Source: Cellulophaga sp. Hel_I_12 (GTDB taxonomy: Bacteria; Bacteroidota; Bacteroidia; Flavobacteriales; Flavobacteriaceae). From it: DNA of 64,000 nt. Position 1 is the first letter of the stretch, and each line of letters starts with the position of its first letter. The stretch is from positions 1,677,501 to 1,741,500 of the forward strand of contig NZ_JUHB01000001.1 of the NCBI RefSeq assembly GCF_000799565.1. The letters are read 5' to 3'. The notes beneath the pieces are model-generated. The model saw only the letters and a program-made list of their open reading frames with translations, had not been told where the DNA came from and ran no database searches. The position numbers and the translations under genes were made by a program. Below are positions 56,118 through 64,000 of the stretch, one piece after another.

Positions 56118-56190
<73 letters not shown>

Positions 56191-56201
56191 CTAGTAAAGA
56201 C

Positions 56202-56232
56202 AAGCCTTTCAAGAAATTGAGAGGCTTTTTTT
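56202..56232 (+). terminator. Rho-independent terminator after the tRNA
   Basis: The stem AAGCCTTTCA / TGAGAGGCTT (one G-T wobble) is followed by a T run, 12 nt past the tRNA end. Just beyond is a direct repeat of GTACAGAATAA (about 56245-56268). Confidence 0.85.
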
Positions 56233-56440
56233 ATTCTACCTAGTACAGAATAAGTACAGAATAAAGTCAAACTCAGAAGTCAATAGTTTTTAATATTAAA
56301 TGTTTCTTTTTGTCTATAATCCATATGAATTACAAGGTCGAATAATAAATTTTACTAAGCTGCAACCCTATTCCTTCCTAAGGGAAGTTTATTATCATAC
56401 AATATAACCGCAATTTAAACTCGTAAAATATGCTAAATAG

Positions 56441-57091
56441 GTAGAATTAAAACTTTGGGAGGGTAATTCTAAACATCAAACAGAATGCTTGCAAATGACG
56501 AGACTCCTTTCTGTATATACAAAACAGAGCACGATGTTAAAAAACAAACTGCACGGAGAGGCTGTATTAGGGAATCTGAGTAAGGTGGTTGTAAATTCTT
56601 TAAAACGAAGTTTAAAGCACGTGAAAAAAGAACTAAAAACCTTAGAAGATAAATTACTTGAAATGGTAAAAGAGAATCATCAAGATGTTTTAACCCGCCT
56701 AAAAACTATACCAGGCATAGGGAACAAAACAGCTGTGATGTTAATTGTTTTAACCGATGGTTTTGATCGTTTTAAAAGTGGAAGTGAGTTATGTAGTTAT
56801 GCGGGTTTAACCCCTGTAATTAGAAAGAGTGGTAGTAGTGTAAACGGACGAAGTAGAATTAGTAAAATAGGTAATCAAAAGCTGCGTAATTTATTATTTA
56901 TGTGCAGTTTTAATGCTTGTAAATACAACAAAGCTTGTCGAGATATTTATCAGCGCATAGTGGCTAAAGGAAAGAGCAAAAAACTAGCTTTAATTGCGGT
57001 ATGTAATAAGGTCTTAAAACAAGCCTTTGCAATTGCTAAATCAGGATTGATATATGACGATACTTATAGAAGTATTCTAGTAAAAAATTAA
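56441..57091 (+). pseudogene. IS110-family transposase, 5'-truncated
   Basis: The open frame runs from just after a TAG at 56438 to the stop at 57091. The first plausible start is TTG at 56489. It encodes only the C-terminal part of an IS110/IS1111 transposase: a coiled helical region, then LKTIPGIGNKTAVMLIVLTDGF, SYAGLTPVIRKSGSS and KIGNQKLRNLLFMC, which is the Transposase_20 domain with its helix-hairpin-helix. The N-terminal DEDD RuvC-like catalytic domain is missing, so the element cannot move by itself. It lies next to the initiator tRNA. Confidence 0.9.
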
Positions 57092-58932: not shown

Positions 58933-58985
58933 ACATAACGTATGCAGATATGCGGCGTTTTAATGCCGTATATGTGCTGTTGTGT
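58933..58985. other. attC-like site A (array end)
   Basis: This 53-nt inverted repeat runs from ACATAAC (58933-58939) to GTTGTGT (58979-58985). The inner stem is ATATGCGGC / GCCGTATAT with one G-T wobble on the plus strand. The outer end TAAACACAAC (minus strand) differs in one base from TAAATACAAC at the start of site B, across the intervening segment. It would be the terminal attC of an array reading on the minus strand. Confidence 0.6.
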
Positions 58986-59108
58986 TTAGTATTTATTCAT
59001 TAGTAAATATACATTTTTTAAATACGATGTCAGTCAGCCGCCACATTAAAAGCGCTCCATATATCTTTTGCTTTTTTTATTATGTGCTTTATCAACCCAG
59101 ACTGATAA

Positions 59109-59423
59109 GGCATCGTCATCAAAAAACGGTCGCTATTATTTCCAAACTCCACTCACTCCAATTTTTATAATACCCTCAGGATCTGTAAATCACTTGACTA
59201 TGTCAAAAATTTCCAGTACCTTCATCAAACTGATATACGTTCCCAACGTTTTGATAGTGAAACTCTCAACGATGTCAATCGAATCAGTTTGAAACGAAAC
59301 TTTATTCAAAGTTCCATTCCTCAGTATTTTAAAAATTGTACTACTCTTAGCTTAATAGCGTCCGAAAAAGAGTATTTGGAACCCAAAAGGCTGATCTTAT
59401 TAAATACAACGTTTGGGCTATGA
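59109..59423 (+). other. Start-less open frame of 104 codons in cassette 1 (possible gene remnant)
   Basis: The plus frame has no stop between the TAA at 59106-59108 and the TGA at 59421-59423, which lies inside site B. It has no ATG-initiated plausible start in the first third. The composition looks protein-like (SLDYVKNFQYLHQTDIRSQR). The codon-aligned minus frame has three stops, so a real minus-strand gene is less likely. It may be a decayed fragment trapped in a cassette. No other gene is recognised in 58986-59403. Confidence 0.25.
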
Positions 59424-59600
59424 TTAGTGCGGGGCAGAAATCCGACGGATTTCCAACTAAGCACTAAGCAAAAGCAGTTTTTTTTGTTTTAATTTTTAGC
59501 TTTCAAAGCAAAATCAAACTGATTTTGCGCACTTTATAAATATACTCAAAGCACTGAACTAAACACCAAAGCCCGCATTAATTATAGCCGTTGTTGGGCA
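59404..59600. other. attC-like site B
   Basis: The 197-nt site starts ATACAAC and ends GTTGGGC. The arms GGCTATGATTAGTGCGGG (59415-59432) and CCCGCATTAATTATAGCC (about 59572-59589) pair at 16 of 18 positions, and the two exceptions are G-T wobbles on the plus strand. An inner AGCACTAAGC motif and GCGCACTTTATAAATATAC are shared with site D. Read on the minus strand, it begins 17 bp after the stop of the membrane protein gene. Confidence 0.7.
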
Positions 59601-59616
59601 CAGGTTTTTTATTTGT

Positions 59617-60177
59617 TTAGTGCAAATTCAATTGATTGTTCGCAGAGCGCTTAAATAGCATGCTCGATAAATAAAACAGAAAAGCAAAAAATCCGCTTAA
59701 TAAAAAAACTCCAGGCACACTTGGTGACCATGAAATTTCTGATGGTGGCCAAATAATTATTGCTATCATTGGTACCATCATTTGAACAACAGATGCAACT
59801 AATAAAGTTTTTGACATTCCTTTGGCCTTAAATCGAGAAATCAGAGCACCTACCAGACCTACCAAAAAAACTGCACCAAACAAAAGATTGGCATCTTGGT
59901 TTTCACTGCCTATAATTCCCACAGCACCGTTCACCCAGAATAGCAAAAAGGCACCCAAAAGTCCTATTACAAAAGCCATTTTATAGGTGGTTTTTTTTGA
60001 TTTTATCGAGACAATTTCATAGGCGATTCCTATTCCGATCAATACAATTCCCATTATTAAGAAATCGGTCAAGTCCCAGTTTATTTCATCAGTAAATCTC
60101 ATTGCAATAAACGGAATTAGTAAAGTGCAAATCACAAAGACAATCCAACCAATAAGTCTTTTAGTATCTAAAATCAT
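59617..60177 (-). CDS. Cassette-borne membrane protein, unknown
   Basis: This 186-residue protein has about six hydrophobic segments (for example GWIVFVICTLLIPFIAMRF, FLIMGIVLIGIGIAYEIV, LFGAVFLVGLVGALI). The family is not recognised. The gene fills most of the segment between sites B and C and is oriented toward site B, as a gene in an integron cassette is oriented toward its own attC. The 5' leader from site C is about 60 bp. Confidence 0.72.
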   Translation of the reverse strand: MILDTKRLIGWIVFVICTLLIPFIAMRFTDEINWDLTDFLIMGIVLIGIGIAYEIVSIKSKKTTYKMAFVIGLLGAFLLFWVNGAVGIIGSENQDANLLFGAVFLVGLVGALISRFKAKGMSKTLLVASVVQMMVPMIAIIIWPPSEISWSPSVPGVFLLSGFFAFLFYLSSMLFKRSANNQLNLH

Positions 60178-60236
60178 ATTCTAATTTAATGATTTTAACT
60201 CATTTTTCATAAACTTTCCATTTTCAGTTTACTTGT

Positions 60237-60435
60237 GCCCAACGGTTTTGTATAAGATTAGTGTGGGAGGTAGACAATGATTAAATTGTCAGCCGAGCCA
60301 CAAGCTTATACTTATTTTGTGTTTTTATCTTTGTCGGACTAAAAATAAATAAATAAGAATAAGCGACACAATAAAGAAACCAAAACTTTGGGTTAAACCA
60401 TAAAAACCCACATTAATTTTATACGGTGTTGGCTA
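60237..60435. other. attC-like site C
   Basis: The 199-nt site starts GCCCAAC (60237) and ends GTTGGCT (60434). The arms GTATAAGATTAGTGTGGG and CCCACATTAATTTTATAC pair at 16 of 18 positions with plus-strand G-T wobbles at the exceptions. Its GTGCCCAAC end is the exact complement of GTTGGGCAC at the end of site B, and its other end GTTGGCTAC is the exact complement of the start of site D. An inner GAGCCACAAGC motif resembles those of sites B and D. Confidence 0.72.
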
Positions 60436-60597
60436 CAGTTTTTTATTTCGTTCCGTTTTAAATTCTGTTAAATTTTCCTCAATCAATTTCTTTTCGGCAA
60501 TACGTTCTCCTTTCCAGAAAAACCTTTTTCCAATTTTCCTCAAATGTTTGTGCCATTCAGAATCGGTTGTCAATTGACCTTTTCGTTTATTTCCCAT
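60433..60597 (-). CDS. Small basic cassette protein, unknown
   Basis: This is a 54-residue protein from ATG to TAG, starting MGNKRKGQLTTDSEWHKHLR, highly basic with no hydrophobic segment. Its start overlaps the end of the DUF4288 gene by 11 bp, so the two are likely co-translated. Its stop codon TAG lies inside the core of site C (GTAGCCAACACC on the minus strand reads through the stop), so the coding region ends exactly at the site. The family is unknown. Confidence 0.6.
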   Translation of the reverse strand: MGNKRKGQLTTDSEWHKHLRKIGKRFFWKGERIAEKKLIEENLTEFKTERNKKL

Positions 60598-61003
60598 TTT
60601 CAGTCAATTTTTGTTTCGGTTTTATTAATTCCATAAGTTCCTTTTTTTTATAAGGCATTCTCATAGTCCTCCGATTACTAATAAATCCGTAATCATTCCA
60701 CATTAATTCTGCTCCATCTTCAATGTCCTCATAGATTGGAAGTAATTCTCCTATTCCGACAAAAATCGATTCCATTTCTTGTTGGTCAGAGTTAATGAAT
60801 TTATAATTTTTCTCTTTTCCTAGTTTTACGGCTTTGTCAAATGCTTTTTCGGGTGAGTCCGCTTTAATAAGATGATGATTCCCCCAAGTTGTTACTCTCC
60901 GTAAATCTTGTTTTTCATTTCGGATAACGGGTTCGTATTTTTCGATAATCTCAACGATATACCAATTTCCATTTTCGTTCGATATTTTTTCTTGGGTTTT
61001 CAT
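60587..61003 (-). CDS. DUF4288 domain protein
   Basis: This 138-residue protein matches DUF4288 by its start (NGNWYIVEIIEKYEP), its mid motif SPEKAFDKAVKLGKEKNY and the end part SIFVGIGELLPIYEDIEDGAELMW. It is cytosolic, with no signal or membrane part. Its start is only 13 bp from the edge of site D, leaving a very short leader, as is common for genes in integron cassettes. The function of DUF4288 is unknown, though it is often found in accessory regions. Confidence 0.75.
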   Translation of the reverse strand: MKTQEKISNENGNWYIVEIIEKYEPVIRNEKQDLRRVTTWGNHHLIKADSPEKAFDKAVKLGKEKNYKFINSDQQEMESIFVGIGELLPIYEDIEDGAELMWNDYGFISNRRTMRMPYKKKELMELIKPKQKLTENGK

Positions 61004-61015
61004 TTCTCAAATTGT

Positions 61016-61212
61016 AGCCAACGGTCTTGTGTATGAAACGTAGCGTATAAATAGACGCTAACTTTTCGGATTTAGCACGAGCTGAATTTTTTATTTTTAT
61101 GTTTAATTTTCTTTTATAAATATAACCAAATAAAAAATTTGGCGTACTTTGTAAATATACAAAAACCTCTCGGAAAGCCTATAATAGCTATGTTTTATAC
61201 ACGTTGTTGTAC
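61016..61212. other. attC-like site D
   Basis: The 197-nt site starts AGCCAAC (61016) and ends GTTGTAC (61212). The arms GTGTATGAAACGTAGC and the complement of GTGTATAAAACATAGC (right arm at about 61186-61202) pair at 14 of 16 positions, again with plus-strand G-T wobbles. The start GTAGCCAAC is the exact complement of the end of site C. Inner motifs AGCACGAGC and GCGTACTTTGTAAATATAC match site B. The minus-strand end predicts that the next cassette edge beyond 64000 begins GTGTACAAC. Confidence 0.72.
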
Positions 61213-61328
61213 ACTGGCTTTTTCTTTCCGCAAACTTGCTAGCGTTGGCAAAGACATACTCTTTTGCAATTTTGGGCTTGTGTATTGGCTGAAGCGAATT
61301 GTAAATGTGTATGGCTTTTAGAGTTGGC

Positions 61329-62936
61329 TTATTTCCCTCTGTTCAATCTCCTATTTGATAGTTTTTTCCAGATACTATGAGCTAATTCAATTTCAGAGTC
61401 AGAAAGTCCGTAATTTTCTTTCAGTATTTTTTGATTCGTTATTTTTAAAATTTCCGAAATGTCTTTCTTCTCTCTTATCATTTTATCAATAAGAGGAAGT
61501 AAGTCAGAGTTATTTTCATTGTAAGGTAACAGAATTCTTTCTACTTCATTTGGCATTAATTCTAAAACACCTCCTCCGTGACTTCTTCCACAAATTTCTG
61601 TAAATGCTAATGATAAAGAATTATAATAACTAGCTGTCAAAGCCTTTAATTCAAATTTAGGTTTTATTGTAACACGATGCATTGTGTCTGTTGTAAACGC
61701 TTTAGCTTCGTTTATAATTAATTTTGGGTACTTGTTGTTTCTACGTATAAAAAGAGCTTCAGAGATTCTTTGTGATGGTACAATTTGCCATTCCTCTCTT
61801 ATCCTGCATTTATATCCTTCATTAATTTTTTCGTCTTCTCCCCAATTAATGTAATCTCTTGCACCAATAGAACCATTTAAGTCTGCCATTTTTGGAAAAG
61901 ATAGAAAATGCGTTCTAGCTTCTTTATCTCTATTTCTATTCCAATCTTTAGTTGTGAAGATTGCACTAGGAACTTGTACGCTTCTACCAACTAATGGTTT
62001 TGCATATTTTTCTAGATTATAGAATTGTACTGTTGAGAGTGGAACTGTAAAAAATGGATTCGAACCTGTTGTAATTCCTACTTCTACTTTTGCAAATTTC
62101 CCTAATTGATTGAATTTTTTGTCAGACTGAAGTCTCTCTAGAAAGTCAATTTCCTTTTGCTCAAGAAAGTAAAAAGTCCACTTGTTTGATTTGAAATCAA
62201 TTTTCTTTTTAGGACTTTTTAATTTAGAAACATCTAAATTTTTAAGTTCTTCTGCATCTCTTAATTCTAGATGTTCAATTAAATGAGAATTAGAGTTATT
62301 TTTCTCGCAAAGTAATAAAACTACTTCTTGTTGAATATTAGGGAACACAAGTTTCTCAAAAGAAACAATGTTTATTTTGTTATAGAAATGTGCTAAAAAT
62401 TCTCTCAAAGGTTGAGCGTAAGAAACTTGAAGAATTTCCGCTGGCAAAACGAAACCAATTTTACCTTCTTCTTTTAAAAGTAGAGATGAACCAACAACGA
62501 ATGAAACCCAAGCGTTCGTTAATTTTGAATATTTTAAACTTGCCTTATTAAAAATATCTGCTGCATATTGTTGTTGTTCCTTATCGAAATATTGATATCT
62601 AATATATGGTGGATTTCCAATAATTAAATCAAATTTCCTCTCTGTATTAATACAATATTTATGAAAATCTTCATTAATTACAGACGATTTATTTAAACCA
62701 ATAGCTTCTGATTTTTCAGCTTCAACTTCATCAAATTCAATTGCAGTAACTGAATTGTATTCGTAGTTTTCTTTTTGAATTTCTTTTAAAAAAACACCAT
62801 CTCCACAACTTGGTTCTAAAATGTCTAATTCTTTATTTCCATTAAAAGCCCATTTTAAAATAAATGCTGCAATTGGTTCAGGTGTATAAAAACCACCTCT
62901 TAATTTTTCGTCTGATGCTTCTTTAATTAATTGCAT
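61329..62936 (-). CDS. N6-adenine DNA methyltransferase of a restriction-modification-like system
   Basis: This 535-residue class I methyltransferase has motif I (LDILEPSCGDGVFLKEI) and the catalytic motif IV NPPY in DLIIGNPPYIRYQYF, so it methylates adenine at N6. A large C-terminal specificity-like region follows, as in TaqI/Eco57I-type enzymes. No endonuclease domain is seen within it. Its start overlaps the XRE stop by one base (TAATG). A 117-bp gap separates it from site D. The recognition sequence cannot be read from sequence. Confidence 0.88.
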   Translation of the reverse strand: MQLIKEASDEKLRGGFYTPEPIAAFILKWAFNGNKELDILEPSCGDGVFLKEIQKENYEYNSVTAIEFDEVEAEKSEAIGLNKSSVINEDFHKYCINTERKFDLIIGNPPYIRYQYFDKEQQQYAADIFNKASLKYSKLTNAWVSFVVGSSLLLKEEGKIGFVLPAEILQVSYAQPLREFLAHFYNKINIVSFEKLVFPNIQQEVVLLLCEKNNSNSHLIEHLELRDAEELKNLDVSKLKSPKKKIDFKSNKWTFYFLEQKEIDFLERLQSDKKFNQLGKFAKVEVGITTGSNPFFTVPLSTVQFYNLEKYAKPLVGRSVQVPSAIFTTKDWNRNRDKEARTHFLSFPKMADLNGSIGARDYINWGEDEKINEGYKCRIREEWQIVPSQRISEALFIRRNNKYPKLIINEAKAFTTDTMHRVTIKPKFELKALTASYYNSLSLAFTEICGRSHGGGVLELMPNEVERILLPYNENNSDLLPLIDKMIREKKDISEILKITNQKILKENYGLSDSEIELAHSIWKKLSNRRLNRGK

Positions 62937-63253
62937 TATTTGTTGGCTTTATTTTTATTGTAATAATTGATTTTCTCTTCTGCAACTTTTAAAACTTTAG
63001 TTGCTAATTCCTCTTCTAAAATTGAATATGCAACTGTATCACTTAAATGAGCTACAGTTAATAAATCTTCATCAATGCTAAATAAAATTGAAATATCCTT
63101 TATGAATTGTTTCGATGGATTTCGATTATTCTTTTCAATCTTTCCAAGCATTGAAGTATCAATTTTTAAATGTTCTGCAACTTCTCGTAATGTTAGATGA
63201 TTTTCAGTGCGTAAATCTCTAATTGTTTCTCCGAATGATTTTTCTAATTGCAT
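62936..63253 (-). CDS. XRE-family regulator, probable R-M controller
   Basis: The 105-residue protein is called from the ATG at 63253; an in-frame TTG at 63286 would place coding sequence through the palindromic operator and is rejected. The HTH_3 domain (LTLREVAEHLKIDTSMLGKIEKNNRNP) covers residues about 15-65, and a short helical tail ends the protein. It is coupled to the methyltransferase by a 1-base overlap, which fits a controller of its expression. No restriction domain is present. Confidence 0.85.
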   Translation of the reverse strand: MQLEKSFGETIRDLRTENHLTLREVAEHLKIDTSMLGKIEKNNRNPSKQFIKDISILFSIDEDLLTVAHLSDTVAYSILEEELATKVLKVAEEKINYYNKNKANK

Positions 63254-63258
63254 AATAT

Positions 63259-63283
63259 TTTGGACAACTTCAGTCCAAATATA
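63259..63283 (-). promoter_or_regulatory. Palindromic operator and -7 box of the XRE-methyltransferase unit
   Basis: TTTGGAC, seven bases, GTCCAAA is a perfect inverted repeat at 63259-63279, ending 5 bp before the regulator ATG. On the minus strand TATATTTG (63283-63276), a TAnnTTTG match, overlaps its upstream half. The XRE protein probably binds here and controls its own operon. Confidence 0.7.
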
Positions 63284-63322
63284 CAAATGTCATTCGAACT
63301 AGCTATATTTTTTTTAGGTTTT

Positions 63323-64000
63323 TTATACAATATCAATTAAGAAGTCATTATTTACTTCATATAAGTTTAATGTCTTGCCAGAAAGACTGCTTTTTTGTAA
63401 AACAGGAATAACAGTTCGTCCCCAATGAAGCCAAGTTGGTGTATTACCTTGTCCTGCTACTCTAGAAGAATCGTGGCTTAATTTTAATGTGAATTTCCCA
63501 ATTGGTTTTCCGGAAATTGAAATGTCAAATACACCAAATGTTTCCTCGTATGTTGCACTATGAGGTTTTGTTTTTACCCAATTTAGTTTATTAAATACTT
63601 GATTTCTAAAATAAGTCTTTTGGTCAATTACTGTTGTTCCTAACTTAAATCGAGCTTGTGCTAGTTTTAAATTTCCAGTAATTGCAGTTCCTGCTGGTAC
63701 ATCTTGAGCATCACTATTGCTTAACTTTAATTTTTTCCAAACTAAATTCTTACTTGTTGTAACAGTTGTTACTGGAACTGTTGCTGCAATTGGAACTACT
63801 GTTGCAGATTTAGATTTTTTGCTTTTACTCGGAAATATACTAGAAGGTACTTTTGGAACACTTCTTTTAGGAACTTTTGATTTATTTACCTTTTTTCCAG
63901 TAGAAGTAGAATTCCCTTTTGAGTAATTTCTTTTTCTTGTTGCTTCGTCTGGTACAATTCCATCAAGAAAAAAATTATTAATGACTTTGTTGTCTATTTT
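63323..64000 (-). CDS. Third gene of the R-M-like cluster, 3' part (runs off the window)
   Basis: The minus frame is open from the window edge to the TAA at 63323-63325, giving at least 225 residues of the C terminus. The visible part has a Lys/Ser/Pro-rich low-complexity stretch (KVPKRSVPKVPSSIFPSKSK), then a beta-rich domain with HDSSRVAGQGNTPTWLHWGR and the end LNLYEVNNDFLIDIV. No family was recognised from this part. By position, next to a methyltransferase and a controller, it could be the restriction endonuclease, which is an inference. 69 bp separate it from the XRE gene. Confidence 0.6.
   Translation of the reverse strand, partial: KIDNKVINNFFLDGIVPDEATRKRNYSKGNSTSTGKKVNKSKVPKRSVPKVPSSIFPSKSKKSKSATVVPIAATVPVTTVTTSKNLVWKKLKLSNSDAQDVPAGTAITGNLKLAQARFKLGTTVIDQKTYFRNQVFNKLNWVKTKPHSATYEETFGVFDISISGKPIGKFTLKLSHDSSRVAGQGNTPTWLHWGRTVIPVLQKSSLSGKTLNLYEVNNDFLIDIV

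What the first reader, a model, noticed from the sequence alone, without database searches (positions are those of the whole stretch)
58933..64000. Integron-like gene cassette array in a flavobacterium, without a visible integrase
Four inverted-repeat sites (A-D) separate minus-strand genes. In the sequence, the end of each site is complementary to the facing end of the next site across the cassette: GTTGGGCAC (site B) with GTGCCCAAC (site C), GTTGGCTAC (site C) with GTAGCCAAC (site D), and nearly so for A with B. The two ends of any one site do not match each other. In known integrons the R' core at a cassette's start is the complement of the R'' core of its own attC, and cutting occurs at G^TT, which is this pattern. 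Genes are all oriented toward their proposed attC and sit within 0-120 bp of it. Sites of about 197 nt are longer than most described attC sites.
Basis: partly seen in the sequence, partly recalled or inferred. Interest (0 to 1): 0.87.

Follow-up and report, generated by a model that had tools for sequence, protein, structure and literature searches.

The report
Hidden integron type in Flavobacteria
The window holds the edge of a gene-collecting device that looks like an integron, with dozens of mostly single-gene modules in one chromosome, but its recombinase lacks the part thought essential in known integron enzymes, and the same kind of sites occurs in many Bacteroidota.

Summary
The four sites are real and the cassette reading holds. 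The window is the outer end of one of three arrays in this 4.03-Mb chromosome, about 98 sites. A tyrosine recombinase gene lies 6.9 kb past the window end; a homologue ends an array of about 84 kb elsewhere. After the integrase stop comes a conserved attI-like sequence (19 of 21 type-2 loci), then mostly single-gene cassettes. Facing cassette ends are complementary (72 of 75 neighbours, array 1); ends of one site are not. Duplicated cassettes, including the window's 833-bp one (four copies in three arrays), break at the AAC triplet.

It differs from canonical integrons in two linked ways. The integrase lacks about 42 residues where 16 of 16 canonical Bacteroidota IntI have their insertion. Its stems mostly lack the single-base bulges found in all 23 canonical sites examined and instead have two fixed G-T pairs that favour folding of the non-coding strand. 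A covariance model finds sites in 117 of 296 Bacteroidota genomes, beside 19 of 20 such integrases and none of 16 canonical IntI. Cassette movement is inferred from sequence, not observed. My searches listed no published description. I call it a new variant of integron.

The parts
58937..58981 (+). site A: short attC-like hairpin, 45 nt, of a gene-less cassette
   Evidence: found by the site scan only at a relaxed threshold
58939..59409 (.). cassette 0: site A plus about 430 bp without an intact gene
   Evidence: five further copies at C1:1743222, 1746278, 1747718, 3731211, 3731685; match ends lie at or within about 18 nt of the AAC triplets
59408..59595 (+). site B, attC-like, 188 nt; the gene it serves is on the minus strand
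59410..60242 (.). cassette 1 (833 bp): site B plus gene 59617-60177
   Evidence: three other copies, 99-100% identical, in two other arrays, same ends
59617..60177 (-). cassette 1 gene, 186-aa ORF, membrane-protein-like by reading, no Pfam family over its cut-off
60241..60430 (+). site C, attC-like, 190 nt
60587..61003 (-). cassette 2 gene, DUF4288 (PF14119)
61020..61208 (+). site D, attC-like, 189 nt
61329..62936 (-). cassette 3 gene: Eco57I-type adenine DNA methyltransferase
   Evidence: PF22837, PF07669
62936..63286 (-). cassette 3 gene: HTH protein, perhaps the controller of the restriction-modification genes (inference)
   Evidence: HTH_19, HTH_3
63323..64000 (-). cassette 3 gene, runs off the window: PLD-domain protein, perhaps the restriction nuclease (inference); the next site is at window coordinate 64907 (genome C1:1742407)

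Best explanation
This is a chromosomal integron-like gene-capture system of Bacteroidota. Shown by sequence: an intact tyrosine recombinase gene, an attI-like site within about 200 nt after its stop codon, and a tail of mostly single-gene cassettes, each made of one gene plus one attC-like hairpin, nearly all in one orientation. Inferred: the recombinase binds the hairpin folded from the non-coding strand, cuts in AAC (G^TT on the coding strand), and inserts excised circular cassettes next to attI; it can also excise and reshuffle them. In the free circle the two outer arms of about 14 nt pair. Strand choice is probably set by conserved G-T pairs (A-C mismatches on the other strand) rather than by the extrahelical bases of canonical sites, which fits an integrase without the IntI insertion. 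The confidence is for integrase-driven cassette movement; the single-strand step is less sure, and the duplex rival below overlaps with it.
For: Integrases; catalytic R in 39 of 39 aligned sequences, K, H, R, H and Y in 38 of 39 with one row gapped there. attI: 19 of 21 type-2 loci carry ATATAAYNAGTTR within 400 nt after the stop, background 1 match in 668,468 bases searched; of the 8 loci I had not looked at when writing the pattern, 7 have it. Cassette-end complementarity: 72 of 75. Unit boundaries: 21 duplicate pairs (18 own, 3 in L073): 38-40 of 40 identical inside the right end in 21, 35-40 inside the left end in 20, at most 23 of 40 outside the left end in 20, at most 24 outside the right end in 17. 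Gene orientation: longest ORF on the minus strand in 80 of 85 own cassettes with an ORF of 50 aa or more (3 of 88 have none); 49 of 51 in relatives (6 of 57 have none). Stem covariation: 202 cells with both sides changed against a mean of 53 in shuffles. Mismatch polarity, strand-symmetric scan: 196 G-T against 5 A-C (94 own sites), 170 against 8 (80 sites of relatives). Association: R1 sites beside 19 of 20 such integrases, 75 sites, all on the same side with the same end facing the integrase; 0 beside 16 canonical IntI; genome-level odds ratio 7.5 against 0.78 for canonical IntI.
Against: No excision or insertion event was observed; no reads were available. 49 of 117 genomes with sites had no integrase hit and 28 of 96 with the integrase had no site hit; the site search scored at most ten candidates per genome with strict filters, the integrase search used E <= 1e-60, and the genomes are related, so the p-value is only indicative. 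Three of the 296 genomes (G000, G125, G131) also gave sites to the model. In the first set of 20 relatives' loci, 14 had linked sites; three of the six others end within 200 nt of the integrase. One of the second 20 loci (L173) gave no R1 match, though the other scan saw two linked sites. Of 80 loci from named genomes 16 gave R1 matches, one of them (weak) outside Bacteroidota; many Bacteroidota loci there gave none. The attI-2 pattern as written is absent from two of 21 type-2 loci and, by eye, from five more distant loci shown. Array 3 has no such integrase beside it. Other tyrosine recombinases lie 7-32 kb from the arrays (C1:1755056, 1755367, 3761708, 4003412) and were not studied. Site A is unlike the rest. 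In relatives the stem pattern is less clean: in one set of 77 linked sites, 19 have an A-C and 11 no G-T.
Confidence: 0.86

Rival explanations
1. An ordinary integron of the IntI family whose attC sites are merely divergent or decayed (a CALIN).
For: Anatomy, polarity and cassette-end complementarity are those of integrons; canonical IntI arrays in the same phylum show a similar 11-nt complementarity. Trees place six short insert-less integrases next to IntI with SH-aLRT 93 and 89. Integrons in Bacteroidota are already on record (PMC8618304, passage).
Against: TIGR02249 integron-integrase scores are 193 and 200 bits, below the cut-off of 265, and the own genome has no match at E <= 1e-55. Spacing of the K and H motifs is 58-61 residues in 38 of 39 (one row gapped) and 100 in 16 of 16 IntI. 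IntI rows form one clade with support 100 without them. No bulge in 85 of 95 own stems, one to three in 23 of 23 canonical stems; G-T pairs in 93 of 95 against 0 of 23.
Confidence: 0.08
2. Site-specific cassette movement by a Xer-like recombinase on double-stranded DNA; the hairpins and G-T positions are only an asymmetric duplex recognition sequence. (Shares the cassette system with the best explanation; differs in the single-strand step.)
For: Closest solved relatives are XerA proteins; Xer enzymes act on double-stranded dif sites (recalled). The G-T positions could mark orientation in duplex DNA.
Against: Stem letters vary while pairing is kept (97% of cells paired, 0 of 500 shuffles reach the covariation score), and mismatches on one strand are nearly all G-T, which matters for a folded single strand.
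Confidence: 0.2
3. The sites are dispersed palindromic repeats (REP or MITE-like) and genes are shuffled by homologous recombination between them.
For: Sites are repeated and similar; some also lie scattered outside the arrays.
Against: Copies of one cassette stop at AAC while the flanking sites are mostly unlike each other; homologous exchange would end anywhere within a shared stem. One recombinase family tracks the sites; transposases were not tested for this.
Confidence: 0.03

Closest known systems
Sedentary chromosomal integrons (IntI, attI, attC; Vibrio cholerae type)
   Same: Integrase-attI-cassette order, mostly one gene per cassette, uniform orientation, ends at AAC/GTT, G after AAC, spacer of unequal sides between outer and inner arms, dozens of cassettes, unrelated cargo; folding of the non-coding strand is inferred here.
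   Different: Integrase lacks the residues of the IntI insertion and scores below the family cut-off; stems carry two fixed G-T pairs and few bulges; outer arms rarely fit GTTRRRY; genes of the long integrases point towards the array.
XerA / NF040815 'site-specific tyrosine recombinase/integron integrase'
   Same: Catalytic and core-binding domains; int-1 scores 235 bits against a cut-off of 220, int-2 213.
   Different: About 100 extra N-terminal residues, predicted as a folded domain, in the long type; sits beside a cassette array.
XerC/XerD with pdif modules (recalled)
   Same: Xer-like enzyme moving small gene modules.
   Different: pdif sites are short double-stranded sites without hairpins; here sites are hairpins of roughly 45-220 nt and an attI lies beside a dedicated integrase.

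Membership tests
Canonical integron | Integrase gene of the IntI family (over the TIGR02249 cut-off) | tested here: not met
   193 and 200 bits against 265; own genome no match at E <= 1e-55
Canonical integron | IntI-specific insertion in the catalytic domain | tested here: not met
   58-61 residues between the K and H motifs in 38 of 39 rows (1 row gapped) against 100 in 16 of 16 IntI; IntI4 aligns in two stretches around the gap; a paper passage calls the insertion essential (PMC8138268)
Canonical integron | attI beside the integrase gene, next to the first cassette | tested here: met
   19 of 21 type-2 loci; type-1 palindrome seen by eye in seven loci; attI function not tested
Canonical integron | attC sites whose R'' pairs with the R' at the start of the same cassette | tested here: met
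   72 of 75 neighbouring pairs
Canonical integron | Core consensus GTTRRRY / RYYYAAC (recalled) | tested here: not met
   7 and 5 of 98 sites, both in 0 of 98; weak criterion, since 9 and 7 of 23 canonical sites meet it
Canonical integron | Extrahelical bases in the attC stem | tested here: not met
   no bulge in 85 of 95 own sites; one to three in 23 of 23 canonical sites, from 9 of 16 IntI loci
Canonical integron | Cassettes of mostly one gene, same orientation | tested here: met
   80 of 85
Canonical integron | Cassettes move as units with ends in the core triplet | tested here: met
   inferred from 21 duplicate pairs and one cassette shared with a congener; no event observed
Canonical integron | Single-strand bottom-strand recombination by the integrase | not testable with these tools
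   only indirect: covariation and mismatch polarity
Canonical integron | Cassette promoter Pc | not tested
   no promoter analysis was made

The most novel reading that the evidence does not exclude
Bacteroidota carry a second kind of integron in which an integrase without the IntI insertion recombines folded single-stranded sites, and strand choice is written as G-T pairs rather than extrahelical bases. Either folded-site recombination came before the insertion in integron evolution, or integrons arose twice from Xer-like enzymes.
Probability: 0.6. Interest if true: 0.93.

Novelty: new variant of a known kind. Interest (0 to 1): 0.86.

Why it matters
A published hypothesis ties the rise of integrons to gain of the IntI insertion (PMC4792948, passages), and strand choice is attributed to extrahelical bases (PMC2727003, passages). 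Here the array, the polarity and the cassette units exist largely without either. That makes the origin of integrons directly testable with two enzymes and two site types from one phylum. [quoted passage not shown] I could not run IntegronFinder on this genome.

Tried and rejected
IntI-type explanation: rejected on insertion, stem features and neighbourhoods. Canonical GTTRRRY test kept only as weak evidence, because canonical controls meet it in 9 of 23. Extended end complementarity as a special feature: dropped after canonical arrays showed it too. The first mismatch count used a scan that favoured G-T pairs on the + strand; it was repeated with a symmetric scan, and only that is used. The first site scan was too strict (13 sites on +) and the second too loose (171 hits, 134 in a shuffle); one search replaced them. 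The N-terminal extension as the general substitute for the IntI insertion: rejected, because short integrases without it also sit beside arrays. The divergent zinc-finger ORF as a general partner: rejected, found in 12 of 82 loci besides the two own ones. Search for a relative in viral contigs: none. Tree: backbone unresolved; whether the insert-less integrases are one clade is neither shown nor rejected (p-AU 0.65). The PDB fold search listed mostly tyrosine recombinases in its 50 rows; the N-terminal domain was not searched separately. Rows dropped: L163 integrase (87-aa reading frame only) before the tree; L082 and L088 integrases left out of alignment A2 because of stops; 3 distant recombinase rows removed before the AU test and the spacing count; one of 71 sites left out of alignment A1 by hand; 4 of 72 cassette proteins could not be placed and 3 near-copies were left out before the 65-protein scan. 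Integrase coordinates in one helper file were one base low for 19 of 20 loci (used); this shifts no conclusion on side or strand and was corrected for translations.
Full report
THE OBSERVATION. The four sites are there. B, C and D run from an AAC at 59408, 60241 and 61020 to a GTT at 59595, 60430 and 61208, and fold as single-stranded DNA better than all or nearly all of 200 shuffles; A is a short hairpin at 58937-58981. In what follows 'left' and 'right' ends are on the + strand; the genes are on the minus strand, so the + strand is the non-coding ('bottom') strand. The right end of each site is complementary to the left end of the next one, across the gene.

THE WHOLE CHROMOSOME. The window is C1:1677501-1741500 of a single 4,031,126-base contig. 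Blastn of the region gave 60 matches, 59 on one strand and mostly clustered. A site finder run on fetched stretches gave 76 sites in an array that runs across the contig ends (4 in a shuffle, 0 in the last 23 kb of flank), and 98 sites in three arrays by a common filter. A covariance model finds 87 at E <= 0.01 in the whole chromosome. Array 1 reaches from about C1:4018389 through the contig ends to the attI-like site at about 70990, some 84 kb; array 2 contains the window part and ends near C1:1748190; array 3 is at C1:3710224-3732158. The cassette that spans the contig ends has matching ends (11 of 12), as expected if the contig closes to a circle there.

ONE RULE HOLDS ALONG THE ARRAY. Over 75 neighbouring site pairs of array 1 the facing cassette ends match at 10.5 of 12 positions on average, 9 or more in 72; the two ends of one site match at 6.4 of 12, the same as shuffled pairings. 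The match runs over about 14 positions. Position 11 is the exception: it matches in 1%; the right end has G there in 71 of 76 and the left end, by reading, T, so a G-T pair on the + strand and an A-C mismatch on the coding strand.

THE MOBILE UNIT. I cut the arrays at AAC and compared 88 own and 57 relatives' cassettes. 21 pairs (18 own, 3 in L073) are near-full-length copies. Inside the right end 38-40 of 40 bases agree in all 21; inside the left end 35-40 in 20 of 21 (29 in one); outside the left end at most 23 in 20 of 21 (39 in one); outside the right end at most 24 in 17 of 21 (32-40 in four). The window's own cassette 59410-60242 occurs four times (99-100% identical) in three arrays. So the unit is one site plus one gene with its ends at the AAC triplet. 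Of 88 own cassettes 85 have an ORF of 50 aa or more, and in 80 the longest is on the minus strand; in relatives 49 of 51, with 6 of 57 lacking one. Cargo is unrelated: 65 cassette proteins gave 31 Pfam families, each of the 25 shown in one member: methyltransferases, acetyltransferase, glyoxalase, an antitoxin, a cation transporter and unknowns. Cassette 3 of the window looks like a restriction-modification set.

THE INTEGRASES. Of 16 tyrosine-recombinase matches in the chromosome two lie at array ends: int-1 (C1:71034-72161, 375 aa) and int-2 (C1:1748404-1749582, 392 aa, 6.9 kb past the window), 34% identical and both with about 100 extra N-terminal residues that a model folds as a domain (mean pLDDT 84, pTM 0.52). 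Others lie 7-32 kb from the arrays (C1:1755056, 1755367, 3761708, 4003412) and were not studied. Both score best as XerA-like (235 and 213 bits, cut-off 220) and under the integron-integrase cut-off (193 and 200 against 265). Solved structures agree: XerA first, IntI4 matched in two stretches. In a joint alignment of 39 such integrases and 16 canonical IntI from the same phylum, 58-61 residues separate the K and H motifs in 38 of 39 (one row gapped) and 100 in 16 of 16; the catalytic residues are kept. IntI is one clade with support 100; the rest of the backbone is unresolved.

attI. Within about 200 nt after the integrase stop codon and just before the first cassette there is a conserved sequence. 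For int-2 relatives it is ATATAAYNAGTTR, in 19 of 21 loci, with one match in the 668,468 remaining bases searched; I wrote the pattern after seeing 13 of these loci (12 had it), and 7 of the 8 others have it. Five more distant loci shown (L199, L202, L203, L217, L224) do not have it as written. For int-1 relatives it is a palindrome followed by the GTT, seen by eye in own int-1 and six other loci.

RELATIVES. 124 of 199 genomes of the family have an integrase homologue at E <= 1e-40. Around 20 of them, chosen from the hits, 14 have sites with linked ends downstream of the integrase; three of the other six end within 200 nt of it. A model R1 was built from 70 short sites. In 296 genomes of the phylum, R1 sites occur in 117, the insert-less integrase in 96 (E <= 1e-60), both in 68 (odds ratio 7.5); canonical IntI occurs in 85 (84 over the cut-off) and shows no association with the sites (30 both; odds ratio 0.78). 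49 genomes have sites without an integrase hit and 28 the reverse. Near 20 insert-less integrases of other genomes R1 finds 75 sites at 19 loci, all on one side with the right end facing the integrase; near 16 canonical IntI it finds none. Among 80 loci from named genomes R1 gave 53 matches in 16 loci, near integrases of Seonamhaeicola, Winogradskyella, Algibacter, Algoriphagus, Rufibacter, Flavobacterium and other Bacteroidota, with one weak match (E 9e-4) outside that phylum; many Bacteroidota loci there gave none. In a congener with int-1 83% identical, 17 sites lie in 20 kb and one cassette (92% identical over 478 of 577 bp, ending at the cassette end) is shared with the window's genome; seven other cross-genome rows over 350 nt, to other loci, were not examined one by one. 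The platform is kept and most of the cargo differs.

THE STEM. Pairs covary strongly (97% of cells paired; 202 cells changed on both sides against 53 in shuffles), while one pair is G-U in 68 of 70 and another in 56 of 70. With a scan that treats both kinds of mismatch alike, the + strand shows 196 G-T and 5 A-C in 94 own sites and 170 and 8 in 80 sites of relatives, mostly at two fixed places. Own stems have no bulge in 85 of 95 and two G-T pairs in 82 of 95 (none in 2); 23 canonical sites from 9 of 16 IntI loci have one to three bulges each and no G-T. Over further loci the contrast holds but is less clean: 77, 76 and 50 sites with 56, 53 and 42 bulge-free, A-C in 19, 3 and 1, and no G-T in 11, 2 and 3.

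HOW IT PROBABLY WORKS. Shown: parts, polarity, units, and copies in several arrays and one congener. Inferred: the integrase binds the hairpin of the non-coding strand, cuts in AAC, and joins it to attI; pairing of the outer arms in the free circle explains why only ends of one cassette match; G-T pairs make the non-coding strand the better hairpin. In canonical integrons the extrahelical bases direct strand choice (PMC2727003, passages); that the IntI insertion reads them is recalled. Here both are largely missing together.

PRIOR ART. Eight full-text searches listed no paper that by title or abstract start describes such arrays in Flavobacteria; I read passages of seven papers. Integrons as such are on record for Bacteroidota (PMC8618304). 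Most subscription papers and all preprints are missing from that library, so an earlier description cannot be excluded. One survey built attC models for 11 taxa, none of them Bacteroidota in the passages seen (PMC8352920).

Noticed in passing
window 56118-57091: tRNA-Met followed by an IS110-family transposase ORF (200 aa, probably partial) at the outer border of array 2; some IS110-type elements target attC sites (recalled).
   Followed up: partly
window 58936-59410 and C1:1743222, 1746278, 1747718, 3731211, 3731685: A gene-less cassette of about 480 bp with a 45-nt site, six copies in two arrays; perhaps a parasite of the system.
   Followed up: partly
L016:12253-12642 and L019:13667-14074: A small zinc-finger-like ORF divergent from the integrase, in both own loci and in 12 of 82 relatives' loci, just upstream of the integrase where found.
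   Followed up: partly
L016:9719-10941: IS3-like transposase genes between attI-1 and the first cassette gene of array 1.
   Followed up: no
L158-L163, L165, L166, L177: Integrases without the N-terminal domain whose genes point away from the array, as in classic integrons, while the long ones point towards it; one short one (L167) also points towards it.
   Followed up: partly
C1:3710224-3732158 (L017, L018): Array 3 has no such integrase beside it; it holds one of the four copies of the window's 833-bp cassette.
   Followed up: partly
L178-L193: Canonical IntI integrases are over the cut-off in 84 of 296 Bacteroidota genomes, with linked canonical sites at 9 of 16 loci read, more than the survey passages I saw suggest.
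   Followed up: partly
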